Assembly (NCBI RefSeq): GCF_030539665.1
Contig: NZ_JAUNXR010000001.1
Coordinates: forward strand, 1 to 64,000
Length of the DNA stretch: 64,000 bases
Origin: Methanobrevibacter sp.
GTDB taxonomy: Archaea; Methanobacteriota; Methanobacteria; Methanobacteriales; Methanobacteriaceae
Direction of reading: 5' to 3'
The notes under the pieces are model-generated. The model searched no databases and was not told the origin of the DNA. It was given only the letters and a program-made list of their open reading frames with translations. This document shows, piece by piece, positions 2,990 to 49,647 of this stretch (its first letter is position 1; the number at the start of each line of letters is the position of its first letter). Position numbers and translations under genes: made by a program.

Positions 2990-3054
2990 ATTATTTATTT
3001 TATAAATTTTAGTTAAATAATCTTTTCAATGGGACCCCATTTGATTATAAATAG

Positions 3055-3146
3055 TATAAGTTATAACTTATAATCTCATTTTATAGACGATCAAGAGTTG
3101 ATTTTCAGTATAACTTATAACTTATAAGTTAAGTTATTTATATATA
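3055..3146. promoter_or_regulatory. Palindromic boxes and TATA element between radical SAM gene and thyA
   Basis: The perfect 18-bp palindrome TATAAGTTATAACTTATA lies at 3055-3072. A second perfect 14-bp palindrome, TAACTTATAAGTTA, lies at 3118-3131, next to the 17-bp box 3109-3125 that also occurs at 18-34. A TATA-like element (TTATATATAATA, about 3138-3149) follows, suitably placed upstream of thyA. These are candidate operators for one or both divergent genes; the binding factor is unknown. Confidence 0.5.
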
Positions 3147-3170
3147 ATAATAGGAACTAATATATTACTA

Positions 3171-3866
3171 ATGTTAACTATTAATCAATGCTATTTAGAT
3201 TTTGTTAAAAAAATCCTTAATGAAGGAAAGGAAACATATAAGGATAGCGATCATCATTTAAAGGAAAATTTAGGTAACTATTATTTTATTGAAGATCCTT
3301 TAAATTTGAAATTTAAAGCCAAGTATCAGAACATGACTTCTGATATGATGCTTGACATGATTAAATCTGGAAAGTTTGACATGGAAGGATGTCCAATAAA
3401 AAGTGATGCTCTTTTTGAATATGTGAAATCTTTTGATGATGATTCAGATCAAGGATTTGTATATAGTTATCCTAACAGAATTTTAGCACATTTTGATGTT
3501 AATCAGTTTGATGTAATGAAAGATAGAATTTTAAATTCTACCGGAAGTAATCGTGCAGTTGCTGTAACTTATGACCCTGCACTTGATTGTAATCGTGAAG
3601 ATATTCCTTGTCTACAGATACTTCAAGCAGTTGTACGTGATGGTGAATTGACCATTCATTGCTTCTTTAGATCAAATGACATATATGGCGCATTTTACTC
3701 TAACATGTTTTTTATAGCTTATATTGGTATAAAACTTAAAGATGAAGTAAATAAGGAATTAATTTCTGAAAAGCTAAACTTTGGTGGCGTTCATTATTAT
3801 TCATCATCTGGTCATATATACAATACTGATTTAAGAAGTGCTAAAAAATTAATCTCAAAACACTAA
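3171..3866 (+). CDS. thyA: Thymidylate synthase, archaeal short type
   Basis: A 231-residue protein matching the methanogen thymidylate synthase family, which methylates dUMP to dTMP using a methylene-pterin donor. The catalytic cysteine region is DIPCLQ (about residues 145-150). The conserved nucleotide-binding segment RSNDIYGAFYSNMF follows near residue 168 and corresponds to the R-S-x-D-x-x-x-G-x-P-x-N region of ThyA. The C-terminal SSGHIYNTDL corresponds to the His-Ile-Tyr element. It is shorter than bacterial ThyA (about 264 residues), as is usual for methanogens. The ATG at 3171 has only a weak upstream AGGAAC. It is divergent from a DNA-metabolism radical SAM gene, which is consistent with a nucleotide/DNA theme. 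A long AT-rich stretch without genes follows (3867-4156). Confidence 0.88.
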   Translation: MLTINQCYLDFVKKILNEGKETYKDSDHHLKENLGNYYFIEDPLNLKFKAKYQNMTSDMMLDMIKSGKFDMEGCPIKSDALFEYVKSFDDDSDQGFVYSYPNRILAHFDVNQFDVMKDRILNSTGSNRAVAVTYDPALDCNREDIPCLQILQAVVRDGELTIHCFFRSNDIYGAFYSNMFFIAYIGIKLKDEVNKELISEKLNFGGVHYYSSSGHIYNTDLRSAKKLISKH

Positions 3867-7100: not shown

Positions 7101-10100
7101 TTTGGGCTGCTAAAAATTTGATTGTAATTAAAAATTCTACATTCATTAATAACAGCGCTCCTTATGGTGGAGCTTTAAGAGGCGCTGCAAACATAACTGA
7201 TTCCAAATTTATTGGAAATAATGCTACTGACGGTAATGGTGGTGGAATTGACATGACCATTTATGACGTTCAAACCAATCCTCCGTTAGTGTCAGTGAGA
7301 GATACACTATTTTATAACAATACCGCTTGGGGAGGGTATCACAAGGATGATAGATCCCAAGGTGGTGGATTGCATACATACTGGCTTTCAGGTATTATAA
7401 TTGAAAACTGTACTTTCATGAATAACACCGCTGCAAGAGGTGGAGGACTTGATTTATACCTTGTAAACGAGTCCTACATTAACAACAACGTATTCTACAA
7501 CAACTCTGCTATTATCGGTGGAGGTATCGCTCTTGTAGGAGACAACGCAATTCTTCATGACAATGAAATTAAAGACAATTTAGCTGTCAGAGGTGCTGGT
7601 GCTCAGATTATTGGTAACAACTCTGAAATTTATGACTGTAATATCACAAACAATATTGCAAACTCAGGAGGAGGTTTATGGATTTCAGGAAACGGAACAC
7701 TTATTAAGGATTCCCTAATAGAATGGAATGAGGCACTTATGGGTGGAGCAATCTACAAGTTCGGTAACACTTTAAACATGACCAATGTAACTGTTCACCA
7801 TAACACTGCTTTGTTGGATGTTTCATCAAACATCACAGATTTACTTGCATTGCCAATTTTCGTACAATATAACTTTAAGTTTGTTCAAGATGGATTTGAC
7901 TTGAATCTTACCTATGATGGTAGTCAAGGAAGGGGAGTCATAGATTATGATGTTGGTTTAGGTGGAGGACTATATACCTTAGGTAGTATCTCCGGTCAAA
8001 GTATTATCGATGATTGTCTATTCTACCACAATACTGCTCGTAACGGTTCTGCTATATATGCGGTTCCTTATAGCATGTTGGTAAATAACACATACTTCTA
8101 TTCCAATTCCGCATGGTCTTACGCTTTACCAATAAACTTCGACAGTGCAACAATCAACGTTGGAGAAAAGCTTAAAGGAAACGTTACACTTATTGGTGGA
8201 GATAACTTAATCAATGCAATATACAATGCAAATTCTCCAAGTGCATTCCAATTGCGTAATGTTACCTATGAATACTATGATGGAGATAAAGTCGTAAACA
8301 GAACTACAAAAGTATTGGCTACTCCAGTTGACGGATATGAAAATAGTGAGGGTGGATCAGTAGTATACCAAGACGACCGTGAAAACAATCAGATTATAAA
8401 CATTACCATTAAAAACAAAGAGGATAATCAAGTTGTATATCAGACATCAGGCCGTACCGACATTGCAGGTAACGTATACTTTGAAACACCGGAATTGCCG
8501 GTAGGAGAGTATACAATAGAGGCAGTCCACAAAAACGGAATTCCGTACCATCCAAACAGGGATTACTATTACACTGACATTGATAACGAAACCAACTTTG
8601 CAGTCATTGACGAAAGGGAAGAGGAAGTTGATGTTGGAGTAACTAAAGAAGCAAACGCAGATAGTGTATACTTAGGCCAAGAAGTGACTTGGACAATTAC
8701 AGTAAAAAATCATGGTACAATAACTGCTGAAAATGTTGTACTTAATGATGTCTTGCCTGCAGGATTGGAATTTGTTTCTGCAGATCAAGAAGGATATGAT
8801 TCTGCAAACGGTGTTTGGACAATAGGTAATTTAGATGCTGGCGAAAGTAAAACTCTAACAATTGTATCAAGAACCACTGCAAAAGGTTCAATTAAAAACA
8901 CAGCTACTGTAACTACAGATTCCGTTGATGTTAATCCAGACAACGATGAAGATGATGATACTGTAGAAGTGGTTTCTGTTGACGTTGGGGTGACAAAGGA
9001 AGCTGATGTTGAAGTTGCTAATCCTGGAGACACTGTAACATGGACTGTTACAGTTACTAACAATGGTGATGGACTTGCTAAAGACGTAAATGTGACTGAT
9101 ACATTACCTGCTGGTTTAGCATATGTAAGTGCTACAGCTAGCGAAGGTACTTATGATTCTTTAAAAGGTGTTTGGACAATCGGTGACTTGACTGCTGGCC
9201 AAACCGTAACTTTAACCATTGTTTCAAGAGTTACCGAAACCGAGGAAGCTACAATAACCAACATTGCAAAGGTTACTACTTCATCTCCTGATACTGATCC
9301 TAACAACGATGAGGATAGCGACGATGTTGAAGTTGAGCCTGTCTGTGATGTGTCTATCGAAAAGGTAGCTGATCCAAAAACCGCTGTATTTGAAGATTCA
9401 GTAACATGGACTCTTACTGTTAAAAACAACGGTCCTTCCGTTGCTAAAAACGTAAAAGTAACTGATGTATTGCCAGCTAATTTGGATGCAACTTCAATTG
9501 TTCCAAGCAGAGGAACTTATAATGCAGATACTGGTATCTGGACAATTGGCGATTTGAATGTAAATGAAGAAGTTACCTTAACTATCGTAACAAAAATCAC
9601 TGTTGACGCTAATGTAAATATTGTAAATACCGCGAAGGTAACTACAACCACCAAAGACAGCAATCCTGACAATGATGAGGATAGCGATGATGTGGATGTA
9701 ACTGAAATTCCTTTACCTAAGGTTGATTTGGTTTTAACAAAAGAGGCTAATGAGACTAGTGTTGGTCCTAATGCTCCTGTAACCTGGACTATTATAGTTA
9801 AAAACGATGGTCCTGAGGATGCGGCCGATGTTGTTGTTAAGGATGTCTTGCCTGCTGGCTTAGGATATGTCAGTGCTACTGCTAGCCAAGGTACTTATGA
9901 TGCAGCTACTGGTGTATGGACTATTGGTAGTTTGGCTAATGGTGCAACTGTAACCTTGACTATTGACACTATTGTTAACGTTAATACTGCACAGACTATT
10001 AAAAATGAAGCTGAAGTCAATACTTCCTCAAACGATACTGATCCTACTAACAACAAGGATGATGAGGATGTTGAAGTTGTTCCTGTCTGTGATGTAGCTG

Positions 10101-13100
10101 TTGAAAAGGTTGTTAGCCAAACTATAGCTAATCCTGACGATACTGTAACATGGACAATCACAGTTACAAACAACGGACCATCTGCCGCTGAAAACGTATT
10201 GGTTAAAGATGAAATACCTGCTAACTTGGATGCTAATTCCATTGTGGCAAGCAAAGGTACTTACGATTCCTTGAAAAATCTTTGGACAATCGGCGATTTG
10301 GCTGTAAATGAAAAGGTTACCTTAACTATTGTAACCAAAATTACTGCAACTGAGGCTATGGATATTACCAATGTTGCTAAAGCGAACACAACTACCAAGG
10401 ATTCAAATCCTGACAATGATGAGGACAATGACACAGTTAAAGTTACATTAGTTCCAAAACCTGAAGTTGATTTGGTTTTAACAAAAGAGGCTAATGAGAC
10501 TAGTGTTGGTCCTAATGCTCCTGTCTCATGGACCATTACAGTTACTAACAACGGTCCTGAGGATGCGACTGATGTTGTTGTTAAGGATGTCTTGCCTGCT
10601 GGCTTAGGATATGTTGACGCTACTGCTACCAAAGGTACTTATAATAAAGATACTGGTATTTGGACTATTGGTGATTTGGCTAATGGTGCAACTGTAACCT
10701 TGACTATTAATACTATTGTTAACGTTAATACTGCACAGACCATTGTAAATGAGGCTGAGGTCACTACCTCTTCAGATGATACCAATCCTGACAACAACAA
10801 TGATGATGACGATGTCGAAGTTATTCCTGTCTGTGATGTTGTTGTTGTAAAAGAAGTTAACCAGACTGTTGCAGGCACTAACCAAGAAGTTACCTGGACT
10901 ATTACTGTCACAAACAAAGGTCCATCCATAGCAAAAGACGTTGTTCTTAAGGATGTCTTGCCTTCTGGCTTGGAATTCGTTTCAGCAGATCAAACAGGTT
11001 ATGCTGCAGATACCGGTGTCTGGAACATCGGAGATTTAGATGTTGATGCTACCGTAACTTTAACTATTGTAAGCAAAGTCACTGCACTTACCGGTGTAAA
11101 CATTACAAACGTTGCAGAAGCTACCACAACAACTGAAGATTCAAACACTACAAACAACAAGGACAACGATACAGTAGAAGTGGATACTGTCTGTGATGTA
11201 GGTGTTGAAAAAACAGCTGATAAGACTGTTGCCAATCCGGAAGATACTGTAACATGGACTATCACAGTTACTAACAATGGTCCTTCTGTTGCTAAAGATG
11301 TAAAAGTTGAAGATGCTTTACCTGAAGGTTTAGAATACACTTTATCTACCACTACCGTAGGCAATTATGCTGACGGCATCTGGACTATTGGAGATTTAAA
11401 TCCTGGTCAAAGTGTTACCTTAACTATTGTAAACAAAGTAACCGCTCTTAACAATGTAAACATTACAAATGTCGCTAAGGTAAACACCACTACCAAGGAT
11501 ACCAATCCTGAAAACGATAAGGACAACGATACAGTTGAAGTCATTCCGCTTTGTGATGTTGAAGTCGTAAAGGTCGTTAACCAGACCATTGTAAAACCGG
11601 GCGAATCTGTAACCTGGACAATTACAGTTAAAAACAACGGACCTCAAACAGCTAAAGATGTTGTTGTAGACGATCTCTTGCCTGCTGGATTGGAATTCGT
11701 TTCAGCTAATACTGCTACAGGAACTTATGCAAACGGCATTTGGACAATCGGTGATGTGGATGTCGATGGAACTGTAACCTTGACTCTCGTAACCAAAGTT
11801 ACCGAAACTAAAGCTGCTAACTTGACAAATGTTGCAGAAGCTACCACAACTACCGAGGATACCAATCCTGACAACAACAAGGACAATGACACAGTTGAAG
11901 TCATTCCTGTATGTGATGTGGCTGTTGTTAAAGTTGCTAACGAAACCAAGGTAGGTCCTGATTCAAATGTTGAATGGACCATAACAGTTACCAACCACGG
12001 TCCTTCTGCTGCTGAGAATGTAAACGTAACTGATCTCTTACCTGAAGGTGTGGAATTCGTTTCAGCTAATGCTGGAGTCGGAGCTTATGCTGACGGTGTT
12101 TGGACAATTGGTGATTTGGAAGCTGGTAAATCCGTAAGCTTAACTCTTGTAACCAAGGTCACTGCAACTACTGGTAACATTACAAATGTCGCTAAGGTAA
12201 ACACCACCACTGAGGATAACAATCCGGACAATGATGAGGACAATGAAACAATCGATGTGGTTCCGGTTACTGATGTGGCTGTCACTGTCACTGTCAATCA
12301 GACTGTTGTTCATCCTGAAGATGTCATTTCATGGAATGTTACCGCTACAAACAACGGACCTTCATTAGCTGAGAATGTAAACGTGACTGATCTTTTACCT
12401 GAAGGCTTGGAAGTTGTTGATGTAATTGTTCCTGATGGAACTAGCTATGACCGCGACACTAATGTTTGGACCATTGGTGACTTGTCTGTTGGAGAAGAAT
12501 TGAAATTGGTAATTGTAACTAAGGTCAAGGAAGATGCAACCGGTAATTTGACTGTAGAAGGAACAATCGAAACATCTACCGTTGACACCAATCCAAACAA
12601 CAATTATGATAATGACACAACCGAAGTTATCCGTGAAGTTCCAGTTTGTGATTTGGAAGTTGTAAAAGAAGTCAACCAAACTACCGTTAACCCTGGCGAT
12701 ACAATTGAATGGACTTTAACAGTTACTAACAACGGTCCTTCTGCTGCTGAAGATGTATGTGTGACTGACGTATTGCCTGCTGGTCTTGAATTTGTTGATG
12801 CTGCCGCTTCTGTTGGCAACTTCGAGAACAATGTTTGGATCATAGGCGATTTGGAAGCTGACCATACTGTAACCTTGACCATCATAACCAAGGTCACTGA
12901 AACTGCAGCGGTTAACATTACAAATGTCGCTAAGGTAAACACCACTACTGAGGATAACAAGCCGGACAATGATGAGGACAACGATACTGTTGAAGTTGTT
13001 CCTGTCTGTGACGTTGAAGTTGTAAAAGTGGCTAATCAGACTGTTGTAAATGCTGGCGAGTCCGTAACATGGACTGTAACCGTTACCAATAACGGTCCTT

Positions 13101-14260
13101 CTACCGCTGAAAATGTGAAAGTGACTGACGTATTGCCTTCTGGCTTAGAATCCATTTCAGCTAATGCTGATGTTGGTGCTTATGCTGGCGGTGTTTGGAC
13201 TGTTGGTGATTTGGAAGCTGGCCAAACTGCAACATTAACTATCGTAACCAAAGTCACTTCTACTGCAGATACTCATATGAATATAACTAACGTGGCTCAA
13301 GGAAACACTACTACCAAGGATACAAATCCTGACAACGACAAGGACAATGAAACAATCGAAGTTGTTCCGGTTACCGATGTAGGAGTTACTGTTAAAGTCA
13401 ACCAGACTGTTGTTCATCCTGAAGATGTCATTTCATGGAATGTTACAGCTACAAACAACGGACCTTCATTGGCTAAGGATGTAAACGTAACTGACCTTTT
13501 ACCTGAAGGCTTAGAGTTTGTCGATGTAATTGTTCCTGATGGAACCAGCTATAATCCTGACACTAACGTCTGGACCATCGGTGACTTGCCTGTTGGAGAA
13601 GAATTGACATTAGTCATTGTAACTAAGGTCAAGGAAAATGCAACTGGTGACTTAACAGTGGAAGCTACTGTTGGTACCTCTTCAGTTGACACTAACCCAA
13701 ACAACGATTATGATAAGGATACTACCAAGGTAATCGGTAATTCTACTGATTTGATCGTATTCAAAATAGCTAACAAGGACAAATACGCTATTGGAGATAC
13801 TGCAAAATGGACTATTGTCATTCATAATACTGGCGATGTGGATGCATTAAATGTAAAAGCAAATGACCTCTTGCCTGAAGGCGTTCTTTATTTAAGCTCT
13901 AGTGCAACTCAAGGTATCTACGATCTTGAAACTGGTGTTTGGAATGTTGGAACCTTGGCTGCAGGTAACTATGTGATTATTGACATCTACACCAAAGTTG
14001 TCTCTGCAGGTAATTTAACCAACTCTGTAAACGTTACAACCGATACACCTGAAACAGATTATGAAAACAACTATGCAACCTTCACAATATCTGTTGAAGA
14101 GGAACTGGTTCCTGCACCTGAAAACGAAACAAACAATGAAACCCACGTAATCGAAAACGAGATCGTAAAACCAGCAATGTTAAACACTGGAAATCCTATC
14201 ATGGCATTATTAGTATTGTTAATGTTGCCATTAGTGGGATACATTCGCAGAAAAGAATAA
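4157..14260 (+). CDS. Giant adhesin-like surface protein (beta-helix + 15 DUF11 repeats + membrane anchor)
   Basis: A 3367-residue secreted protein. The TTG start follows a GGTGAT site. A signal peptide (about residues 1-23, hydrophobic core LFLTILIILLTIVPVFA) precedes a long right-handed beta-helix region (about 30-1370) with the Asn/Gly-rich repeats of Chlamydia-polymorphic-outer-membrane-like and pectate-lyase-like helices. A link of about 100 residues leads to fifteen DUF11 domains of about 120 residues each (about 1491-3313), with signatures VTWTITVTNNGPS and VWTIGDL. The C-terminus (from about 3341) is NTGNP, a hydrophobic segment and RRKE, a membrane anchor. Such proteins are typical Methanobrevibacter adhesin-like proteins; ligands are unknown. 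Eight DUF11 domains begin with a lone cysteine. It is a single gene with its own promoter. Confidence 0.93.
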   Translation: MLKKSWLFLTILIILLTIVPVFADDPGVEGNSVEIEADTISDINGYFNNGSISSSDTVYLGNKSYSNDGTTIAIENLNNIVINGGTISDPDSYSTFTVNNGNLLTFTNGANITFLNIHFKGMAGQTENNPYMTLNSEDGYIKFINCTFDDIQSDTSNNVLELTAKDLLISGTNFTNIKAGLEYGPKNIINGNVQSVNISNSNFKDIFGAKAFTGTTSRVIFSGNNFTKVNGANGKSFIDMSSNAEEFIFINNYLDNVQSSIVSGSANSYNISNNNFTKVNGKGKTVIDFGTVSGEFVFTNNYLDDVQSELWSTIYSIINGTASSYNISNNIFNNTNGPLDFSKGTSDNFIISGNNFTKINAKGKPVIDFGTVSGEFVFTNNYLDDVQSEQYSTISDILKGTASSYNISDNVFNNTKGPLNFADGTTDSFVISGNNFTNIDSSGNTKLPIINFGTVTGDFLFTGNNLENVSVKYGMNPTDIITGSAKSYNISDNVFNNVNGSIDFSAGTGSENFIMSGNNFTKVNNNQFINFGTVTGEFVFTGNSLENVSSINNNNPNALITGSATSYNISDNSFTNISGYIDFSGSTSDKFILSNNNFTNIYTPYNDFINIGTVNGEFLSKNNNFTEIKTHLSNEYNNIITGTANDIVIDNSSFQKIDGSVFKFDSGSNLKIINSTFSQILFNDPIVHFDITGDFVCVNNTFSNMTSTNVVLDGTANTYVLKGCNFKFFNAGIVNFGDGEKCEISNINIDKVNLDSNLITTNSKNTNIHNCSFSDIDLHDQFVVIKTNGQNSNITNVTFTKCGNGEAIEVNGDNTIVSDIEFIGFYSSTDGSGLIIKSSHNLIENCTFINCTSNINGGSLVVKGGEYNVINNCTFINSTTTGSGGAIDVQGNNNIINNSYFEGNVATKAIISEQQDGGGAIYFNENYRNLTVANSYFKDNIGYNSGGAIRLAGSDSTIENCTFLGNYVETGGNDVPYGGGAIWAAKNLIVIKNSTFINNSAPYGGALRGAANITDSKFIGNNATDGNGGGIDMTIYDVQTNPPLVSVRDTLFYNNTAWGGYHKDDRSQGGGLHTYWLSGIIIENCTFMNNTAARGGGLDLYLVNESYINNNVFYNNSAIIGGGIALVGDNAILHDNEIKDNLAVRGAGAQIIGNNSEIYDCNITNNIANSGGGLWISGNGTLIKDSLIEWNEALMGGAIYKFGNTLNMTNVTVHHNTALLDVSSNITDLLALPIFVQYNFKFVQDGFDLNLTYDGSQGRGVIDYDVGLGGGLYTLGSISGQSIIDDCLFYHNTARNGSAIYAVPYSMLVNNTYFYSNSAWSYALPINFDSATINVGEKLKGNVTLIGGDNLINAIYNANSPSAFQLRNVTYEYYDGDKVVNRTTKVLATPVDGYENSEGGSVVYQDDRENNQIINITIKNKEDNQVVYQTSGRTDIAGNVYFETPELPVGEYTIEAVHKNGIPYHPNRDYYYTDIDNETNFAVIDEREEEVDVGVTKEANADSVYLGQEVTWTITVKNHGTITAENVVLNDVLPAGLEFVSADQEGYDSANGVWTIGNLDAGESKTLTIVSRTTAKGSIKNTATVTTDSVDVNPDNDEDDDTVEVVSVDVGVTKEADVEVANPGDTVTWTVTVTNNGDGLAKDVNVTDTLPAGLAYVSATASEGTYDSLKGVWTIGDLTAGQTVTLTIVSRVTETEEATITNIAKVTTSSPDTDPNNDEDSDDVEVEPVCDVSIEKVADPKTAVFEDSVTWTLTVKNNGPSVAKNVKVTDVLPANLDATSIVPSRGTYNADTGIWTIGDLNVNEEVTLTIVTKITVDANVNIVNTAKVTTTTKDSNPDNDEDSDDVDVTEIPLPKVDLVLTKEANETSVGPNAPVTWTIIVKNDGPEDAADVVVKDVLPAGLGYVSATASQGTYDAATGVWTIGSLANGATVTLTIDTIVNVNTAQTIKNEAEVNTSSNDTDPTNNKDDEDVEVVPVCDVAVEKVVSQTIANPDDTVTWTITVTNNGPSAAENVLVKDEIPANLDANSIVASKGTYDSLKNLWTIGDLAVNEKVTLTIVTKITATEAMDITNVAKANTTTKDSNPDNDEDNDTVKVTLVPKPEVDLVLTKEANETSVGPNAPVSWTITVTNNGPEDATDVVVKDVLPAGLGYVDATATKGTYNKDTGIWTIGDLANGATVTLTINTIVNVNTAQTIVNEAEVTTSSDDTNPDNNNDDDDVEVIPVCDVVVVKEVNQTVAGTNQEVTWTITVTNKGPSIAKDVVLKDVLPSGLEFVSADQTGYAADTGVWNIGDLDVDATVTLTIVSKVTALTGVNITNVAEATTTTEDSNTTNNKDNDTVEVDTVCDVGVEKTADKTVANPEDTVTWTITVTNNGPSVAKDVKVEDALPEGLEYTLSTTTVGNYADGIWTIGDLNPGQSVTLTIVNKVTALNNVNITNVAKVNTTTKDTNPENDKDNDTVEVIPLCDVEVVKVVNQTIVKPGESVTWTITVKNNGPQTAKDVVVDDLLPAGLEFVSANTATGTYANGIWTIGDVDVDGTVTLTLVTKVTETKAANLTNVAEATTTTEDTNPDNNKDNDTVEVIPVCDVAVVKVANETKVGPDSNVEWTITVTNHGPSAAENVNVTDLLPEGVEFVSANAGVGAYADGVWTIGDLEAGKSVSLTLVTKVTATTGNITNVAKVNTTTEDNNPDNDEDNETIDVVPVTDVAVTVTVNQTVVHPEDVISWNVTATNNGPSLAENVNVTDLLPEGLEVVDVIVPDGTSYDRDTNVWTIGDLSVGEELKLVIVTKVKEDATGNLTVEGTIETSTVDTNPNNNYDNDTTEVIREVPVCDLEVVKEVNQTTVNPGDTIEWTLTVTNNGPSAAEDVCVTDVLPAGLEFVDAAASVGNFENNVWIIGDLEADHTVTLTIITKVTETAAVNITNVAKVNTTTEDNKPDNDEDNDTVEVVPVCDVEVVKVANQTVVNAGESVTWTVTVTNNGPSTAENVKVTDVLPSGLESISANADVGAYAGGVWTVGDLEAGQTATLTIVTKVTSTADTHMNITNVAQGNTTTKDTNPDNDKDNETIEVVPVTDVGVTVKVNQTVVHPEDVISWNVTATNNGPSLAKDVNVTDLLPEGLEFVDVIVPDGTSYNPDTNVWTIGDLPVGEELTLVIVTKVKENATGDLTVEATVGTSSVDTNPNNDYDKDTTKVIGNSTDLIVFKIANKDKYAIGDTAKWTIVIHNTGDVDALNVKANDLLPEGVLYLSSSATQGIYDLETGVWNVGTLAAGNYVIIDIYTKVVSAGNLTNSVNVTTDTPETDYENNYATFTISVEEELVPAPENETNNETHVIENEIVKPAMLNTGNPIMALLVLLMLPLVGYIRRKE
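5015..5324 (+). repeat. 80-residue in-frame repeat in the beta-helix region
   Basis: The 70 bp at 5015-5084 recur without change at 5255-5324, a period of 240 bp (80 codons). They encode an identical IDFGTVSGEFVFTNNYLDDV-type rung. Weaker copies of the same unit extend on both sides (about 4800-5900), showing that the helix grew by duplication of an 80-residue unit. Confidence 0.8.
8627..14095 (+). repeat. Array of 15 DUF11 repeats
   Basis: Repeats start near 8627, 8978, 9344, 9722, 10088, 10466, 10832, 11192, 11552, 11912, 12269, 12647, 13007, 13373 and 13745. The period is 351-378 bp and is exactly 360 bp for several consecutive units. Units 3-4 resemble units 5-6, and units 10-11 resemble 13-14, so expansion went by pairs as well as single units. 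Each unit is an Ig-like beta-sandwich of the DUF11 family. Confidence 0.9.
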
Positions 14261-38659: not shown

Positions 38660-41539
38660 ATGAATAAAAAGTTATTGGCATTATTTATTGTCTTAGTTTG
38701 TGCTTTTTCCATATCTGCCGTTTCAGCAGAAGATGGTGGCTCATTCACTAATCTTAATTCTACTATTTCAGAAGCTGAAAATACTGTAGATTTGGATGTG
38801 GATTATGTTAGGGAAAGCACTGATTTAAACTCTGCAATTGATATTACAAAAAATATTGTAATTAATGGTAATGGAAAAACAATTGATGGTAATAATAAGG
38901 GACCTATATTTAAAGTCGGCACTGGCGTAACTGTAACTATCAATGATCTTACTTTCATTAACGGTAATGGTGATTATGGTGGTGCAATTTCAAATTATGG
39001 GACTTTAATATTAAACAATTGTAAATTTGAGAATAATACTGCAACTTATAGGGGTGGAGCAGTTTACAGTGAAGGCGTTTTAATCGTAAGTGATTCAATT
39101 TTTGATAACAACAATATTACAACACGTAATGTTAACAATGATTATGGTGGAGCAGCTATTGCCAATATGGGAGGAGTATTAACAATGAAAAACACCAAAG
39201 TTCTCAATCATATTGGAGATTATGTTGAACGTGATAGTACTGCTGCTTACAAAGGAGATTTAATAGTTGGTGCTGTTCTTACCACAGGTACCACTATCAT
39301 CGAAAATTCCAGGTTTGAAAATAACAAAGGTTGTTATGGTGGAGCAATCACTTCATTTGCACCTAACTACGATACAACCAAGCCGATTGACGTAACTATT
39401 ACTGGTACAGTATTTTTAAACAATACAGCTTATAATGGTGGAGCAATCGATGCAATGATTACCAATTTAAATGTTATGGGCTGTTACTTTGTTGACAATG
39501 TCGCTACTGGTGTTGGGGATACTTCGATCAATAGCGGTGGTGGTGCAATTGCAGCACACTATAAAAATACTACAGCTAGACTCATGGGAGATCTTTTCTA
39601 CAACAATGTTGCTAAAGGAAGTGGAGGGGCTCTTATACTTCAGGCTGGAGATAAAATAGTTTCAAACTGTGTATTTGTTAACAATACTGCTGACGTTCAA
39701 GGGGGGGGAGCTGCCTTATTGAAACCTCTTCCAAATGGACCTAACTCTAATGTAACTTTCGATGGATGTACATTTATTGATAATGAAGCTCCAAAATTCT
39801 CAGACATTGCAGTTGAAGGTGGAGAAAAATTAATTTTAAAAAATAATTTAGCAAATGATAAAGGTATTGAAGTTGACGGTGCTGAAATGGATAATGTTAC
39901 CTACATTACTGAAACTAAGGTCAATGATGAAGTAAGCATTGTTGACGGTAAAATATTCATCACAGGTACTGTTAGCCCTACAGCAAATGGTAATGTTACT
40001 ATAATTCTTACTAATAAGGCTGATTCTTCCGTAATTAATAAAAAAGGAAAAGTTGAAGACGGTAAATTCTCTGTTGATGTTGGTGAAATCGCTGAAGGAG
40101 ATTATGAAGTTAAAGCAGAATTTGAACAAAATGAAAGATATTTCAATTCTAAAGATTCAACCAATATTACAATTAACAAAATACCTGTTAACTTAAAAGC
40201 TGATGATGTAGTGAAATACTATAAGAATGGCACTCAATTATCAGTCAGTTTAACAGATGATGAAGGAAATGTTTTAGCTAATCAGGAAATCACTGTCACT
40301 ATTGACGGTCAGGAATTCACTGTTTCTACTGATTCCAATGGTATCGCTACTATTGATCTTGATATGGTTCCTGGAGATTACGTTGCAGAAATAGCTTATG
40401 CCGGTAAGGAAGCTTACAATGCAGCTGAAACTTCTGTCAATGTTCAAATTTTACCTACTATCGTTGCACCGGACATTGACATGTTCTATAAGGATGGCAC
40501 TAAGTATGAAGTTACTCTTTTAGATGAACAGGGTAATCCTATTGCAAATAAAATCGTTACTGTGACTATCAACAGTCCGAGATTCAAAAATCCTGTGTCA
40601 TATGACAGAACTACTGATTCCAATGGTGTAGCTAGCTTGCCTATTAATTTAAGTCCAGGTGAATATACCATCACTGCGAAGTATGGTGATGATTCCGTAG
40701 AAAGTACTGTTAAAATTGATCCTATGACTTATAAACTGTCATCCAATGACATTGACATGTTCTATAAGGATGGTACCAAGTATGAAGTGACTCTTGTGGA
40801 TGCTAAAGGAAATCCTGCAGCTGGTGAAACCGTATCATTAATTCTCAATGGTAAATCTTTTAAAAACCTTAAGTATGATAGGGTGACCGATTCCAATGGT
40901 GTAGCTAGCTTGCCTATTAACTTGGCTATTGGTCAATACACCATTACTGCAAAATACGGTTCAGAAGAAGTTACAACCACTGTAAATGTTTTACAAAAAC
41001 AATGCAACTTGGTTGGAAATGATCTGGTTAAGTACTTCAAGAATGGCACTCAATACACCGTAAAACTTTTAGATGAAGATGGCAATCCTGCAGTTGGTAA
41101 AACAGTATCTGTTACTCTTGTGGGTCAAAACATGAAATCAGTTACTTATAATATCCGTACTGATTCAAACGGTATTGCTACCTTACCTATCAATTTAGTT
41201 GCCGGTCAATACACCATCACTGCAAAATATGAGTCTGTAAGTGTTACAAATAAAATCACTGTTTTGCCGGTATTGACTACTGAAAATCTTGTTGTTTCTG
41301 TAGGTCAATCTGCTGATTTCATCGCTAAGGTTGTAGATGAGCAAGGTAATCCTGTATCAGGTGTAAAAGTAGCATTCACCATCAAGTTCCCATCAAAATC
41401 AGTTACTTACTATAAAATCACCGATTCAAACGGGGTAGCCAAATTGCCTATCAAGTTAGCTCAAGGAACCTACACTGTTAACTTAAGCCTTGACAACGGT
41501 GCAAAAGCTACAGGTATAGTAAGCGTAATCAAGCAATAA
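38660..41539 (+). CDS. Adhesin-like protein A (beta-helix + Ig-like repeats)
   Basis: About 959 residues from the ATG at 38660, which has GGAGGA at 5-6 bases spacing. The signal peptide is MNKKLLALFIVLVCAFSISA-VSA (23 residues). A right-handed beta-helix follows (about 60-410; NNTAxxxGGAI rungs), then about six Ig-like domains (about 412-959). Most of these open with the motif YYKNGTQ or FYKDGTKYEV and contain DSNGVASLPINL. There is no C-terminal membrane segment or sorting signal, unlike the 3367-residue adhesin. The last domain (SVTYYKITDSNGVAKLPIKL) is shared with both downstream paralogues. A run of eight Gs at 39701-39708 lies in the helix region. Presumed surface adhesin; ligand unknown. 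Confidence 0.9.
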   Translation: MNKKLLALFIVLVCAFSISAVSAEDGGSFTNLNSTISEAENTVDLDVDYVRESTDLNSAIDITKNIVINGNGKTIDGNNKGPIFKVGTGVTVTINDLTFINGNGDYGGAISNYGTLILNNCKFENNTATYRGGAVYSEGVLIVSDSIFDNNNITTRNVNNDYGGAAIANMGGVLTMKNTKVLNHIGDYVERDSTAAYKGDLIVGAVLTTGTTIIENSRFENNKGCYGGAITSFAPNYDTTKPIDVTITGTVFLNNTAYNGGAIDAMITNLNVMGCYFVDNVATGVGDTSINSGGGAIAAHYKNTTARLMGDLFYNNVAKGSGGALILQAGDKIVSNCVFVNNTADVQGGGAALLKPLPNGPNSNVTFDGCTFIDNEAPKFSDIAVEGGEKLILKNNLANDKGIEVDGAEMDNVTYITETKVNDEVSIVDGKIFITGTVSPTANGNVTIILTNKADSSVINKKGKVEDGKFSVDVGEIAEGDYEVKAEFEQNERYFNSKDSTNITINKIPVNLKADDVVKYYKNGTQLSVSLTDDEGNVLANQEITVTIDGQEFTVSTDSNGIATIDLDMVPGDYVAEIAYAGKEAYNAAETSVNVQILPTIVAPDIDMFYKDGTKYEVTLLDEQGNPIANKIVTVTINSPRFKNPVSYDRTTDSNGVASLPINLSPGEYTITAKYGDDSVESTVKIDPMTYKLSSNDIDMFYKDGTKYEVTLVDAKGNPAAGETVSLILNGKSFKNLKYDRVTDSNGVASLPINLAIGQYTITAKYGSEEVTTTVNVLQKQCNLVGNDLVKYFKNGTQYTVKLLDEDGNPAVGKTVSVTLVGQNMKSVTYNIRTDSNGIATLPINLVAGQYTITAKYESVSVTNKITVLPVLTTENLVVSVGQSADFIAKVVDEQGNPVSGVKVAFTIKFPSKSVTYYKITDSNGVAKLPIKLAQGTYTVNLSLDNGAKATGIVSVIKQ
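39701..39708 (+). repeat. G8 homopolymer in adhesin A
   Basis: Eight consecutive guanines encode part of VQGGGAALL in an otherwise very AT-rich gene. A gain or loss of one G would shift the frame about 347 codons into the protein. Confidence 0.85.
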
Positions 41540-41585: not shown

Positions 41586-41779
41586 TAAAAAACAGCTATT
41601 TTTATTAGGATTTTTCATTGTAGTTTCAGTAGTATATTGCATTGAATTTCAATAATTGTTCTTGTGTATAACTTATGTTTTAGTAGTTTTAGAAATGTTT
41701 ATATTGGTGAGTTAACATATCTATTTCTTGAGGTATAGTTTTTCTATATCTTGGTTTATTTCATTCATGGAGGAAAATA

Positions 41780-44700
41780 ATGAACAAAAAGATAATTGTA
41801 TTATTAATGATATTAAATGCGCTTTATCTATCTCCGCTGTTTCTGCAGACGACGGAGCTGCTACTACTGTAGCTAATTATACAGACCTTCAAACCACAAT
41901 CGATGATGCTTCTACTGGTGGTTCTATTGATCTATCATCAGATTATAATAGAAACGTCACATTAAAAGATACATGGGTTAACATTACTAAAAATATAACT
42001 ATTAATGGTAACAATCATGTAATTGATGGAAAAGAGGGTTATGTATTTGATATTTCAAAAAATGTAGTAGTAACTATTAATAATGTTACTTTTATTAATA
42101 GTATAAGGCCTATTGATAACTCAGGTAACGTTATTTTAAACAATTGTACTTTCATTAAGAATAATGGTGCTGTCAACTGTTATGCTGGAAGTACTTTGGA
42201 AGTAAATGACTGTAACTTTATTAATAATACAAGAACTTCAAAAACTGCAATGGGTGGAGCAATATCCGCTACCAATGCAGTAGTCAAAATTAATGGTTCT
42301 AAATTTATTAACAACTCTGCTGTAAACAGTGCAGATGACAATGGATTTGCATTTGGTGGTGCTGTATTTGTTCAAGGTGGAGGAAATTTAACTGTTGTTA
42401 ATACTGAATTCACTACTAACAAAGCAAACAGTAAAAACAATAATGCTCAAGGTGGAGCTATTTTCGCATGGAACAATGTTGAATCTGTTTCTGTTGAAAA
42501 TTGTACATTCACCGGTAACTCTGCTGTAAACGGTGGAGCTATCTACACCGACAATAATACTGAGCTTACTGTAAAAGGTTCAAACTTTACTGGTAACTCT
42601 GCTATTGATGATACCGTTGTAGGTTCCGGTGGAGCAATATTCTCTGAAGGCAATCTTAATGTTGATAATTCTACTTTTGTAGGTAATAACGCAACTAACG
42701 GTGGAGCTATTTATGCAGCTGCTACTTCAAATAAAACTGTAACTGTCAAAGATTCTGAATTTAGTAAAAACACCGCAACTCATACTGACGATGCAAAAGG
42801 TGGAGAAGGTGGAGCTATTTTATTAATTGGTTCTATTGACGCTTCTGTATCCGGTTGTACCTTTGAAGACAATAAGGCTAAGTTTAATGGTGCAGATATT
42901 AACAATCAAGCTACTAATTTAGCTGTTACTGATTCTTCATTTGCTAATGGTGTTGCTAGTAAAGGTGGAGCTATTTTCACTAATACTACTGTGATTGTTG
43001 ATAATTCTACTTTTACCAATAGTGCAAGACCTGTCTACAACATGGGAACTGCAACTTTAAATAACAGTACTTTTACCAATAATAAAGGAGCTATTTCTAG
43101 TTTATCTGGAAGTACCTTAGAAGTAAATGACTGTAACTTCATTAATAACACTAGAGCTTCAAGCTATGCAATGGGTGGTGCAATATATGCTACCAATGCA
43201 GCAGTTAAAGTTAATGGTTCTAAATTTATTAACAACTCTGCTGTAAACAGTGCAGATGACAATGGATTTGCATTTGGTGGTGCTGTATTTGTTCAAGGTG
43301 GAGGAAATTTAACTGTTGTTAATACTGAATTCACTACTAACAAAGCAAACAGTAAAAACAATAATGCTCAAGGTGGAGCTATTTTCGCATGGAACAATGT
43401 TGAATCTGTTTCTGTTGAAAATTGTACATTCACCGGTAACTCTGCTGTAAACGGTGGAGCTATCTACACCGACAATAATACTGAGCTTACTGTAAAAGGT
43501 TCAAACTTTACTGGTAACTCTGCTATTGATGATACCGTTGTAGGTTCCGGTGGAGCAATATTCTCTGAAGGCAATCTTAATGTTGATAATTCTACTTTTG
43601 TAGGTAATAACGCAACTAACGGTGGAGCTATTTATGCAGCTGCTACTTCAAATAAAACTGTAACTGTCAAAGATTCTGAATTTAGTAAAAACACCGCAAC
43701 TCATACTGACGATGCAAAAGGTGGAGAAGGTGGAGCTATTTTATTAATTGGTTCTATTGACGCTTCTGTATCCGGTTGTACCTTTGAAGACAATAAGGCT
43801 AAGTTTAATGGTGCAGATATTAACAATCAAGCTACTAATTTAGCTGTTACTGATTCTTCATTTGCTAATGGTGTTGCTAGTAAAGGTGGAGCTATTTTCA
43901 CTAATACTACTGTGATTGTTGATAATTCTACTTTTACCAATAGTGCAAGACCTGTCTACAACATGGGAACTGCAACTTTAAATAACAGTACTTTTACCAA
44001 TAATAAAGGAGCTATTTCTAGTTTATCTGGAAGTACCTTAGAAGTAAATGACTGTAACTTCATTAATAACACTAGAGCTTCAAGCTATGCAATGGGTGGT
44101 GCAATATATGCTACCAATGCAGCAGTTAAAGTTAATGGTTCTAAATTTATTAACAACTCTGCTGTAAACAGTGCAGATGACAATGGATTTGCATTTGGTG
44201 GTGCTGTATTTGTTCAAGGTGGAGGAAATTTAACTGTTGTTAATACTGAATTCACTACTAACAAAGCAAACAGTAAAAACAATAATGCTCAAGGTGGAGC
44301 TATTTTCGCATGGAACAATGTTGAATCTGTTTCTGTTGAAAATTGTACATTCACCGGTAACTCTGCTGTAAACGGTGGAGCTATCTACACCGACAATAAT
44401 ACTGAGCTTACTGTAAAAGGTTCAAACTTTACTGGTAACTCTGCTATTGATGATACCGTTGTAGGTTCCGGTGGAGCAATATTCTCTGAAGGCAATCTTA
44501 ATGTTGATAATTCTACTTTTGTAGGTAATAACGCAACTAACGGTGGAGCTATTTATGCAGCTGCTACTTCAAATAAAACTGTAACTGTCAAAGATTCTGA
44601 ATTTAGTAAAAACACCGCAACTCATACTGACGATGCAAAAGGTGGAGAAGGTGGAGCTATCTTATTAATAGGTTCAATTGACGCTTCCGTATCCGGATGT

Positions 44701-46428
44701 ACCTTTGAAGACAACACAGCAAAATATTATGGTGGAGCCATTAACAATCAGGCTACTAATTTAGCTGTTGATGGTACTGCATTTGAAAATAACGCTGCAG
44801 GTGTAAGTGGTGGTGCTATTTACAATAATGAAACTTTAAATGTCGATGACTCTACATTTAAAGACAACTCTGCTACTAATTATGGTGGTGCAATCTACAC
44901 AGGTAAATACACTAAAGTTTCCAATTCTGAATTTATAGGAAATCAAGCAGATAATGGTAGTGTAATTTACAGTTATCCTGATCCTGCAGTATTAGTATTG
45001 GATAATGTTGTTGCTGATGATAAAGGAATTTATGACAATGGTACTTACAATGTAGAAAACGTTACTTACATTACTGAAACTACCATTGACAACGATTCAG
45101 CTATCATTGCTAACAATGTAGTTATTTCCGGTACTGTAAGTCCTACTGCAAACGGTGATATTACTGTAACCATTATTGATGAAGATGGTACTGTTGTTGC
45201 AACCCAAGACGGTACTGTAACTGATGGAGAATACTCTGTAGACTTCGGTTCAATTAAACCAGGAAATTACACAGTAAAAGCAGAATTCAAGGAAAATGAT
45301 GAATATCTTGCTTCTGAAGCTTCTGCAGATATTGAAGTTTTACCAAGTATGATTGCTAGCGATATTGAAATGATTTACAAAGACGGTACTAAATATAATG
45401 TAACCGTTTTAGATAAGGATGGTAATCCTGCTGCTGGTGAAAACGTAACTGTAAGTCTTGATGGTAAATACTTCAAAAACCTTACATACACCATTACAAC
45501 TGATGAAAACGGTGTAGCATACTTACCTATTAACTTAATAGCTGGTGAATACAACATCACTGCTACTCGTGGTAATGAATCAGTTACAACCAGTATCAAT
45601 GTACTTCCTGCAACAAATAGTTTAGTAAACAACAGCGATATTGTAATGTACTACAAAAACGGTACTAAATACAGTGTAGCTCTTGTAAATGCTAAAGGAA
45701 CTCCTGTTGCTGGCGAAACAGTATCTTTAATCCTTAATGGTAAATACTTCAAAGACCTTAAATATGATAGGATAACTGATGAAGAAGGTATGGTTTACTT
45801 ACCAATCAATTTAGCTGTTGGTCAATACACCATCACTGCTAAATATGGTTCAGAAGCTGTAACTAACTCCATTACTGTTTTAGCAAAACAATACAATTTA
45901 ATTGGAAACGATCTTGTAAAATACTTCAAAAACGGTACTCAATACACTGTAAAACTTTTAGATGAACAAGGTAATCCTGCAGCTGGTGAAACTGTAGCTC
46001 TTACTATCACCGGTAAAAACTTTAAAACAGTTACTTATAATGTAGTTACTGATGAAAATGGTGTTGCAACTTTAACTATTAATTTAGCACCAGGTCAATA
46101 TAGTATAACTGCTAAATATGGTGCTGTAAGTACTACTAACACAGTTACTGTTTTACCTGTATTATCTACTGAAAGTATTATAATATTAGTAGGTGAACCT
46201 GCTGATTTCGTTGCAAACGTTGTAGACGAACAAGGTAGTCCTGCAGCTAATCAAAAAGTAGCATTCACTATTAAATTCCCATCCAAAACAGTTACTTATT
46301 ATAAAGTCACTGATGAAAATGGTGTAGCTAAATTACCTATTAATTTAGCTAAAGGTACTTACACTGTTAACGTAAGTCTTGAAAATGGTGCAAAAGCTAC
46401 TGGTACTGTAAAAGTAATTAAACAATAA
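41780..46428 (+). pseudogene. Adhesin-like protein B, frameshifted in the signal peptide
   Basis: The translation start matching its paralogues is ATG 41780, with GGAGGA 5 bases upstream. That frame gives MNKKIIVLLMILN, then runs into a stop codon at 41870-41872. The rest of the signal peptide (CALSISAVSADDG) and the whole remaining protein lie in the frame of 41728/41767. One base is missing near 41813-41818 relative to both neighbours. Downstream, about 1535 codons are open: a beta-helix with a 307-residue tandem repeat (about 42290-44660), then about five Ig-like domains ending like its neighbours. Translation from ATG 41767 would give MEENNEQKDNCIIN... without a hydrophobic core. It could be an inactive phase, a recent pseudogene, recoding, or a sequencing error. 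Confidence 0.8.
42290..44660 (+). repeat. 921-bp tandem repeat array (about 2.6 copies)
   Basis: Sequence from 42290 to 43739 recurs at 43211-44660 with an offset of exactly 921 bp (307 codons); I found no difference in the parts I compared. The reading frame is kept. It encodes the beta-helix rungs containing FGGAVFVQGGGNLTVVN and SGGAIFSEGNLNVDN. The left edge is at 42289/43210 and the right edge at 43740/44661, where the copies begin to differ. Confidence 0.9.
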
Positions 46429-46572: not shown

Positions 46573-49500
46573 ATGATAAAAAAGGTAATGGTTTTATTAA
46601 CTATCTTAATTTTTGTATTTTCTGTCTCTGCTATTTCAGCAGAAGATAATAATGATTTGAATTATTCAGACCTTCAATCCTCAATTGATCAATCTGGTGA
46701 TTCTATAGATTTAACATCAGATTACACAAGGGCTGAAGGTGAAAAATGGGTTACCATCAATAAGAACATTACAATCAATGGTAATGACCATACAATTGAT
46801 GGAAATGGGTATTATGTATTTGACATTCCAAAGAATACAGTTGTAATTTTTAATAACATTAAATTTATTAACAGCTTAAGGCCTATTGACAATGCAGGAA
46901 CCGTTATATTGAATGATTGTACTTTCAATGACAATAATGGTGCCGTTAACTGTTATGCTGGAAGTACTTTGGAAATCAATAATTGTATTTTTACCAACAA
47001 TGGTAGGGTAGCTACTAATGCAATGGGTGGTGCCATCAGTATTACTAATGCCAAAGTTACAATTTCCAATTCACAATTCACCAACAACGTTGTAAACTAC
47101 AATGGAACCAATCCGGATTATAATTCAGGTTTTGGTTTTGGTGGTGCAATTTTTGCTAAAGGCTCAAATTCCATTTTAGATATAGATAATTCCAATTTCA
47201 ATGATAATTTTGCATATGCAAACAACAATAACTCAAAAGGTGGAGCTATTATGTTGTATGATGGAGCAAAATTATCTCTAAAGAATTCAAATTTCAATGG
47301 GAATGTTGCAGTTGATGGTGGTGCAATTTACGTTGCTCCAAATTCAGTTTTAACTGTAAACGATACTCATTTTCAAGACAATAGCGCTATAAATTCAGAT
47401 ATTAATAAAGGAGGGGCAATTTGTAGTGAAGGATCAGTGGACATTGATAACTCTCTTTTTATGGGCAATGAGGCTGTAAAAGGAGGTGCTATATATGCAA
47501 CAAATGGAAACATTAATATTTCCGCAACTGGATTTGATAGCAATTCTGGAAATGAAAATGTTAATGAGGCATTTGGTGGTGCAATATGTTTGGATTCTAA
47601 TGTTGTGGCCAATATAAATGATTGTTCTTTCCTTGTAAATTCCGCTAACAATGGTGGGGCCATATTTGCAGGCAGCAATAATAATGTCAACATTTCTAAA
47701 AATTCATTCTTAAGCAATTCCGCTAACAATGGAGGGGATTCTTTATTGGGTGGTGCGATCTGTTTAGGTGAAGATAATAATGTGACAGTTGCCGATTCTA
47801 CATTTAGATTCAATAACGCTGGAGCTTATGGAGGAGCTATTTTCAATGAAGGAAATCTAACCCTTATCAATTCCACATTCATAAGAAATAATGCTGGTGT
47901 TGAAGGAAGCATATTCTCCTACGGCTCCAATTCTGAGTTAAATTTGCATAATGTAACTGCAGACGCTAAAAACATAGTCAACAATTATAATAATGTAACA
48001 GAAAACGTGACTTTTATAACAAAGACAGCTATTGACGGCATTTCTGAAAATTCTGCCAATGAAATAATTGTTAATGGTACTGTAAGTCCTACTGCAACTG
48101 GTAATTTAACTATTGAACTTACTAACATGGAGACAGGTGAAATTATAAATGATGTTGGTACTGTTGATAATGGGCAATTTACAGTTAATTTAGGCCAAAT
48201 CACTGCTGGAAACTATAGTATTGTTGTTAAATTTGATGAGAATAGGAATTATACCTCTTCTCAAGCAAAAAGCAGTTTTACAATAACTGGTGTTCCTGTG
48301 GAATTAGAATCATCAGATGTTGTCAAATATTATAACAACGGAACTCAATTGGCCGTTAATTTGACTAATGAAAATGGTGTTCCAATAGCTAATCAAACAA
48401 TTGTATTGACTGTTGACGGTATGGATTATTCAAATATTACAAATTCCAATGGTACTGCAAAATTCGATCTTAATATGGGTCCTGGAAATTACACAGGCGA
48501 AATCTCTTATTATGGCAGTGGAATTTATGAACCTGCAAACATTACTGTAAATATTGAAATATTGTCTAGAATCATTGCAAATGACATTAACATGATGTAT
48601 AAAGATGGTACAAGATATAATGTCACAGTCTTAGATGAACAGGGAAATGTTATTGCTGGCGAAACCGTAACCGTAATTCTCAATGGCCAGTACTTCAAAA
48701 ATCTTACATATTCCATTAATGCAAATGAAAATGGTGTTGCTAGCTTGCCTATTAATCTGGCTCCTGGAAACTATGAGATAACTGCAGTATATGATAATAA
48801 TTCAATTACAACAAACATAACTGTAAATCCTATGAGCTATGATTTAGTAAACAATAGTGACATTGTAATGTATTATAAAAACGGCACTCAATATATGGTA
48901 ACTCTTGTTGACGCATATGGAAACCCTGTTGCCAATGCCGCAGTATCTGTGATTCTCAATGGTCAATATTTCCACAATCTTAAGTACAGCAGGATAACTA
49001 ATGCTGATGGTGTTGCTAGCTTACCTATTAATTTGGCTCCTGGAAACTATGAAATAACTGCTGTCTACGGTTCTGTTCAGTCCACAAGCACAGTAACAGT
49101 ATTGGAACGTAAGGACAGTTTGATGGCTGACAATATTGTAAAATACTATAGGAATGGCACTCAATATACTGTAAAGCTATTGGATGGAAATGGAAATCCT
49201 TTAGCAAATCAGGTTATCACATTAACTCTCAATGGTCAAAACTTTAAAAACGTTAATTACAATGTGTTAACCGATGAAAATGGTGTTGCAAGCTTAACAA
49301 TTAATCTGTTGGCTGGAGAGTATACCATTAGTGCCAAGTATGGTTCAGCTTCTATTACAACCGGCATTACTGTTTTGCCTGTTTTGGTAGCTAACAATTT
49401 AGTTAAAGCATATGGCAAACCTGCAAGTTTCACAGCTAGTATTGTTGATGGTCAGGGCATGCCGCTTCCTGGCGAGAAACTCACTTTCTCCATTAAATTC

Positions 49501-49647
49501 CCATCCAATACCATTTCCTATACTATGGTTACTAATGGTGAAGGTATTGCAAGTCTGCCTATTAACTTGATTCCTGGCAATTACAAAATCACTGTAACTG
49601 CTGAGAATGGGGCAAGTTCAACTGCTGTTGTAAAAGTGGTTTCTTAA
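46573..49647 (+). CDS. Adhesin-like protein C (beta-helix + Ig-like repeats)
   Basis: About 1024 residues. ATG 46573 keeps the same GGAGGA-5-base spacing as its paralogues; ATG 46570 is the alternative. A signal peptide (MIKKVMVLLTILIFVFSVSA-ISA) precedes a beta-helix (about 50-475) and six Ig-like domains (about 477-1024) opening with YYNNGTQLAV, MYKDGTRYNV, YYKNGTQYMV and YYRNGTQYTV. There is no C-terminal anchor. The helix start (IDNAGTVILNDC, AMGGAIS) closely follows that of adhesin B but has a single, unrepeated copy of the 307-residue unit. A TATA-like ATTTATATAT at about 46518 puts the transcript start near 46545. Confidence 0.9.
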   Translation: MIKKVMVLLTILIFVFSVSAISAEDNNDLNYSDLQSSIDQSGDSIDLTSDYTRAEGEKWVTINKNITINGNDHTIDGNGYYVFDIPKNTVVIFNNIKFINSLRPIDNAGTVILNDCTFNDNNGAVNCYAGSTLEINNCIFTNNGRVATNAMGGAISITNAKVTISNSQFTNNVVNYNGTNPDYNSGFGFGGAIFAKGSNSILDIDNSNFNDNFAYANNNNSKGGAIMLYDGAKLSLKNSNFNGNVAVDGGAIYVAPNSVLTVNDTHFQDNSAINSDINKGGAICSEGSVDIDNSLFMGNEAVKGGAIYATNGNINISATGFDSNSGNENVNEAFGGAICLDSNVVANINDCSFLVNSANNGGAIFAGSNNNVNISKNSFLSNSANNGGDSLLGGAICLGEDNNVTVADSTFRFNNAGAYGGAIFNEGNLTLINSTFIRNNAGVEGSIFSYGSNSELNLHNVTADAKNIVNNYNNVTENVTFITKTAIDGISENSANEIIVNGTVSPTATGNLTIELTNMETGEIINDVGTVDNGQFTVNLGQITAGNYSIVVKFDENRNYTSSQAKSSFTITGVPVELESSDVVKYYNNGTQLAVNLTNENGVPIANQTIVLTVDGMDYSNITNSNGTAKFDLNMGPGNYTGEISYYGSGIYEPANITVNIEILSRIIANDINMMYKDGTRYNVTVLDEQGNVIAGETVTVILNGQYFKNLTYSINANENGVASLPINLAPGNYEITAVYDNNSITTNITVNPMSYDLVNNSDIVMYYKNGTQYMVTLVDAYGNPVANAAVSVILNGQYFHNLKYSRITNADGVASLPINLAPGNYEITAVYGSVQSTSTVTVLERKDSLMADNIVKYYRNGTQYTVKLLDGNGNPLANQVITLTLNGQNFKNVNYNVLTDENGVASLTINLLAGEYTISAKYGSASITTGITVLPVLVANNLVKAYGKPASFTASIVDGQGMPLPGEKLTFSIKFPSNTISYTMVTNGEGIASLPINLIPGNYKITVTAENGASSTAVVKVVS

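What the first reader, a model, noticed from the sequence alone, without database searches (positions are those of the whole stretch)
41767..41872. One-base frameshift inside an adhesin signal peptide
MNKKIIVLLMILN (frame of ATG 41780, with the conserved GGAGGA spacing) should continue into CALSISAVSADDG, which is one frame away; the 1535 codons after it are open. Adding one base near 41813-41818 restores a signal peptide like those of both tandem paralogues. It is either an OFF state of a variable adhesin, a fresh pseudogene, programmed recoding, or an assembly/sequencing error. No homopolymer is present at the site, which argues against simple slippage.
Basis: seen in the sequence. Interest (0 to 1): 0.7.

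Follow-up and report, generated by a model that had tools for sequence, protein, structure and literature searches.

The report
Freshly broken methanogen surface-adhesin gene
One of three neighbouring surface-adhesin genes in a gut methanogen (a relative of Methanobrevibacter smithii) has a single reading-frame break inside its export signal, most likely a recent loss-of-function mutation of a kind already known in this gene family.

Summary
ATG 41780, behind GGAGGA, opens a typical signal peptide, but its frame closes at 41872 after 30 codons. The cleavage region and the adhesin body (CALSISAVSADDG...) continue without a stop to 46428 in the -1 frame. No start in the long frame gives a signal peptide, and there is no canonical slippery heptamer, homopolymer or repeat tract at the break. 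The gene is the middle one of three tandem adhesin-like protein (ALP) genes in a Methanobrevibacter-type genome. About 21 other large ALP genes in this genome keep an in-frame signal peptide. Sequencing error is possible but not favoured: 0 of about 168 conserved genes (156 kb) compared with M. smithii ATCC 35061 show a frameshift. By contrast, two more ALP genes in the same genome carry multiple disabling lesions, the closest complete relatives carry broken ALPs too, and a frameshifted ALP is published for M. smithii KB11. Best reading: a fresh, single-lesion ALP pseudogene (or null allele) in a birth-and-death family. Reversible OFF switching, programmed recoding and a residual sequence error cannot be fully excluded without reads. 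Ordinary; low interest.

The parts
41769..41774 (+). Shine-Dalgarno-like GGAGGA
   Evidence: Read directly; same spacing as before ATG 38660 and a third ALP gene on contig C3.
41780..41872 (+). ATG-initiated short frame: first half of an ALP signal peptide, then an early stop (30 aa)
   Evidence: aligned with paralogue signal peptides.
41808..41818 (+). Zone that must hold the reading-frame break: hydrophobic core intact before it, cleavage region intact after it
   Evidence: no homopolymer of 4 or more, no direct repeat.
41818..46428 (+). Adhesin-like protein body in the -1 frame, open to its natural stop (middle ALP gene, 'ALP2')
   Evidence: C-terminus matches those of intact ALPs.
42271..44706 (+). 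Right-handed beta-helix region (PF13229)
42290..44660 (+). Tandem 921-bp repeat, 2.57 copies without a single mismatch
   Evidence: perfect lag-921 identity over 42290-43739.
45382..46419 (+). Array of Big_1 bacterial Ig-like domains
38660..41539 (+). Upstream tandem paralogue with intact signal peptide ('ALP1'); its N-terminus is the one with a syntenic counterpart in relative G009
46573..49647 (+). Downstream tandem paralogue with intact signal peptide ('ALP3')

Best explanation
The middle gene of a lineage-specific tandem trio of ALP genes has recently taken a small indel inside its signal-peptide codons. Ribosomes starting at ATG 41780 make a 30-residue dead-end peptide; the 1535-codon beta-helix/Ig-like body is not translated behind an export signal, so the adhesin should be absent from the surface. 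This is a fresh null allele or pseudogene in a gene family that expands and decays quickly. Shown: the frame break, the otherwise intact body, the lack of a usable alternative start, and other broken ALPs in this genome and in relatives. Inferred: that the lesion is real in the organism, that it is permanent rather than reversible, and that no product is exported.
For: Break and open body. No alternative signal peptide. All ~21 other large ALP-type ORFs in the genome have an in-frame signal peptide. Low background: conserved genes matched to M. smithii ATCC 35061 (G007) show 0 true frameshifts among ~168 (163 full length over 155.7 kb, 5 partial; the one flagged case was a spurious upstream extension of the query). 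Two of the five partial hits were inspected and were not frame breaks; the other three gave no second hit in another frame. Frame lesions do occur in ALPs: a second ALP at G000:C1 ~242.86-244.67 kb has its signal peptide, beta-helix and Ig-like parts in three frames, while 510-640 aa homologues are open in most relatives that have one; a third ALP remnant at G000:C2 ~200.7-202.1 kb lies across frames and has an in-frame stop. Relatives: an ALP split by TGA in M. smithii (L158:11201), three frame-broken ALPs in G002, scattered stops in G004, G008, G038. Literature: the KB11 homologue of ALP Msm_0173 is 'disrupted with a frameshift' (PMC5814497); intestinal Methanobacteriota carry raised numbers of pseudogenes and of ALPs (PMC13135261).
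Against: The lesion is a single event in an otherwise clean gene, which a single sequence error or a reversible switch would also produce. No second strain or reads could be examined. The background rate is a bound only (at most ~1.9 per 100 kb at 95%), which still allows about 0.09 false frameshifts in a gene this long and more than one across the ~88 kb of intact ALP genes.
Confidence: 0.66

Rival explanations
1. Sequencing or assembly error: the gene is intact in the organism and one base was miscalled in the draft assembly.
For: Single lesion, body intact and under past purifying selection; draft assembly of 13 contigs, 95% complete; the gene holds a perfect 2.37-kb tandem repeat that can trouble assembly or polishing.
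Against: 0 true frameshifts in ~168 conserved genes over 156 kb and ~88 kb of intact ALP frames; the junction lies in unique sequence outside the repeat, with no homopolymer.
Confidence: 0.22
2. Reversible OFF state of a phase-variable adhesin.
For: The intact body and lesion position at the signal peptide would make an efficient switch; broken ALPs recur across the genus.
Against: No homopolymer, short tandem repeat, direct repeat or long inverted repeat at the site; lesions in other ALPs lie at unrelated positions and are multiple in two genes of this genome, which points to decay; no paper on phase variation of methanogen ALPs turned up.
Confidence: 0.08
3. Programmed -1 ribosomal frameshifting joins the signal peptide to the body, as in Sulfolobus fucA1.
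For: Direction is -1; a small hairpin (41832-41857) follows the junction; -1 frameshifting exists in archaea (PMC8211752).
Against: No X-XXY-YYZ heptamer in the whole 41780-41872 overlap, unlike A-AAA-AAT of fucA1; hairpin z-score only -1.2 to -1.6; every intact ALP paralogue, and the G009 gene, encodes its signal peptide in frame.
Confidence: 0.03
4. The long frame is translated from an upstream start (ATG 41767 or TTG 41728) as a non-exported or unconventionally exported protein.
For: The long frame is open upstream to 41716 and has ATG 41767.
Against: Those starts give MEENNEQKDNCIINDIKCALS..., with no hydrophobic segment (best 14-residue mean 1.4); no Shine-Dalgarno sequence at a usual distance before either; ATG 41767 overlaps the Shine-Dalgarno sequence of ATG 41780.
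Confidence: 0.01

Closest known systems
Frameshifted ALP Msm_0173 homologue of Methanobrevibacter smithii KB11 (BK798_03360; PMC5814497)
   Same: An ALP gene broken by a frameshift in one strain or species while close relatives or paralogues are intact.
   Different: A DUF11-type ALP (17 DUF11 domains in the intact homologue); position of its frameshift was not read here. The window gene is a beta-helix/Big_1 type and is broken in its signal peptide.
ALPs of Methanobrevibacter and Methanosphaera (archaeal Big-domain proteins; PMC11532034)
   Same: Beta-helix plus Ig-like Big_1 repeats, N-terminal signal peptide in the intact paralogues, large paralogous family.
   Different: This copy has its signal peptide out of frame.
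Sulfolobus solfataricus fucA1 (-1 programmed frameshifting; PMC8211752)
   Same: Short 5' ORF and long 3' ORF overlapping in the -1 frame.
   Different: No slippery heptamer, no tested product, intact paralogues in frame.

Membership tests
Methanobrevibacter adhesin-like protein (beta-helix/Big_1 type) | Right-handed beta-helix repeats | tested here: met
   PF13229 4.4e-32, PF02415 2.5e-29
Methanobrevibacter adhesin-like protein (beta-helix/Big_1 type) | Repeated Big_1/Ig-like domains at the C-terminal side | tested here: met
   PF02369 4e-21; four repeats placed at 45382-46419
Methanobrevibacter adhesin-like protein (beta-helix/Big_1 type) | N-terminal signal peptide in frame with the body | tested here: not met
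   Signal peptide and body are in different frames; so it is a broken copy by descent, not a working member
Pseudogene | Disabling lesion in a gene whose homologues are intact | tested here: met
Pseudogene | Lesion real in the organism, no functional product | not testable with these tools
   No reads, second strain or proteome at hand
Phase-variable gene | Hypermutable repeat tract or invertible element at the switch point | tested here: not met
Phase-variable gene | Both states found within a population | not testable with these tools
   One genome per species held; exact scan of viral contigs empty
-1 programmed ribosomal frameshifting | X-XXY-YYZ slippery heptamer in the overlap | tested here: not met
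   None in 41780-41872
-1 programmed ribosomal frameshifting | Stimulatory structure 5-9 nt downstream of a slippery site | tested here: inconclusive
   Small hairpin, z-score -1.2 to -1.6
-1 programmed ribosomal frameshifting | Conservation of the frame arrangement in homologues | tested here: not met
   All compared intact homologues encode the signal peptide in frame

The most novel reading that the evidence does not exclude
Gut methanogens turn individual surface adhesins off (and perhaps back on) by small indels without repeat tracts, giving a population-level surface-diversity mechanism not described for archaea; the ALP2 signal-peptide break would be one OFF allele.
Probability: 0.07. 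Interest if true: 0.6.

Novelty: new member of a known kind. Interest (0 to 1): 0.2.

Why it matters
ALPs are the main candidate surface-contact proteins of gut methanogens. A census of broken ALPs shows how fast that repertoire turns over, and warns that automatic annotation of this gene would predict a protein with a false N-terminus and no export signal. The single case is ordinary; the recurrence of broken ALPs across relatives is the more useful lead.

Tried and rejected
The genome-contig scan gave only distant relatives, and an exact scan of viral contigs gave nothing, so no conspecific strain was found. The syntenic site in relatives has one ALP (G009, intact signal peptide matching the 38660 gene) or no ALP match (G025), so the broken gene has no ortholog to compare. 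A flagged frameshift in a conserved gene (L117) was a wrong upstream extension of the query. A 10-mer (TAATGATATT) is shared by this junction and the first break of the C1 ~243-kb pseudogene: about 0.0013 by chance for two random 30-nt windows, but it occurs 16 times in 603 kb, often inside intact genes, and is read in different frames at the two sites, so I treat it as chance. Replication slippage at a homopolymer, alternative starts and recoding were examined and not supported.

Full report
WHAT IS THERE. The window is the start of contig C1 of a 1.62-Mb, 13-contig draft genome. Its genus mates include a single-contig genome of 1,853,160 bases; that is the size of M. smithii ATCC 35061 as derived from PMC5814497 (KB11, 1,805,545 bp, is 47,615 bp smaller), so the window belongs to a Methanobrevibacter-type gut methanogen. 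At 38.6-49.6 kb lie three tandem adhesin-like protein (ALP) genes; cfbB lies just before them and, beyond a coiled-coil gene, a fae-hps fusion gene after them.

THE BREAK. At the middle gene, GGAGGA (41769) and ATG 41780 start MNKKIIVLLMILN, and that frame ends at 41872. The cleavage region and body continue from 41818 in the -1 frame to 46428. Both halves align with the signal peptides of the neighbouring paralogues and of the single ALP at the same site in relative G009. The 68 nt from ATG to the cleavage site fall between the 69 nt of the upstream paralogue and the 66 nt of the G009 gene, so the event could be a one-base loss or a two-base gain. The break must lie at about 41808-41818, because the hydrophobic core before it and the cleavage region after it are both intact.

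IS IT MEANINGFUL. The body is a real gene: Beta_helix and Big_1 domains, dN 0.24-0.34 against dS 0.91-1.36 to its paralogues, and the family's usual C-terminus. Roughly 21 other large ALP-type ORFs in this genome all have an in-frame signal peptide, so this arrangement is not how the family is normally built. Long-frame starts upstream (TTG 41728, ATG 41767) give no hydrophobic segment, and the next start codon is at 42196.

ERROR OR REAL. About 168 conserved genes matched between 603 kb of this genome and M. smithii show no true frameshift: 163 are full length over 155.7 kb, and the one case flagged was a wrong query start. This puts the error rate at or below about 1.9 per 100 kb (95% bound). 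The break is outside the repeat and at no homopolymer of 4 or more. The frame lesions that were found in this genome sit in ALP genes: a beta-helix ALP at C1 ~243-245 kb has three parts in three frames while most relatives that have it show open frames of 510-640 aa, and an ALP remnant at C2 ~201-202 kb has frame changes and an in-frame stop. Relatives show the same: an ALP split by TGA in M. smithii, three frame-broken ALPs in G002, and ALP matches with stops in G004, G008 and G038. The literature records a frameshifted ALP in M. smithii KB11 and raised pseudogene and ALP numbers in intestinal Methanobacteriota. This is the pattern of relaxed or fluctuating selection on a redundant family, and it favours a real, recent lesion. 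It does not exclude an error at this one site.

MECHANISM. Most likely a fresh null allele: a 30-residue dead-end peptide is made and the body is not exported. Tandem position, lineage-specific copies (one ALP in G009 at the site, no ALP match in G025) and a mismatch-free 921-bp tandem repeat inside the gene all point to rapid gain, recombination and loss at this locus. Programmed -1 frameshifting is disfavoured: no slippery heptamer in the overlap, an unremarkable hairpin, no conservation. A reversible switch is disfavoured: no hypermutable tract, and degradation with several lesions in two other ALPs.

VERDICT. Observation confirmed; interpretation narrowed to a fresh ALP pseudogene (0.66), then sequence error (0.22), phase-variable OFF state (0.08), recoding (0.03), alternative start (0.01). 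Of a known kind, low interest. I do not state which base would mend the gene.

Noticed in passing
G000:C1 ~242860-244670 (L084 ~1861-3671): A second ALP gene is broken by two frameshifts: GTG start with signal peptide, beta-helix and Ig-like parts lie in three frames; open homologues of 510-640 aa exist across the genus, and the best M. smithii match has only a 150-codon open frame.
   Followed up: partly
G000:C2 ~200700-202100 (L111 ~700-2100): Beta-helix ALP remnant with frame changes and an in-frame stop.
   Followed up: partly
L158:11201 (G007, M. smithii ATCC 35061 by size): A large ALP is split by an in-frame TGA into 1153 and 2715 codons.
   Followed up: partly
L196 (- strand, ~276), L209 ~11269, L210 ~3830 (G002): Three ALP genes in a single-contig genome are frame-broken; none has a run longer than A6 in the stretch around the break.
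   Followed up: partly
window 42290-44660: 2.57 copies of a 921-bp unit without a single mismatch inside the broken gene: a very recent expansion, or an assembly artefact.
   Followed up: partly
window 4157-14260: A 3367-aa DUF11-rich ALP with a TTG start and intact signal peptide.
   Followed up: no
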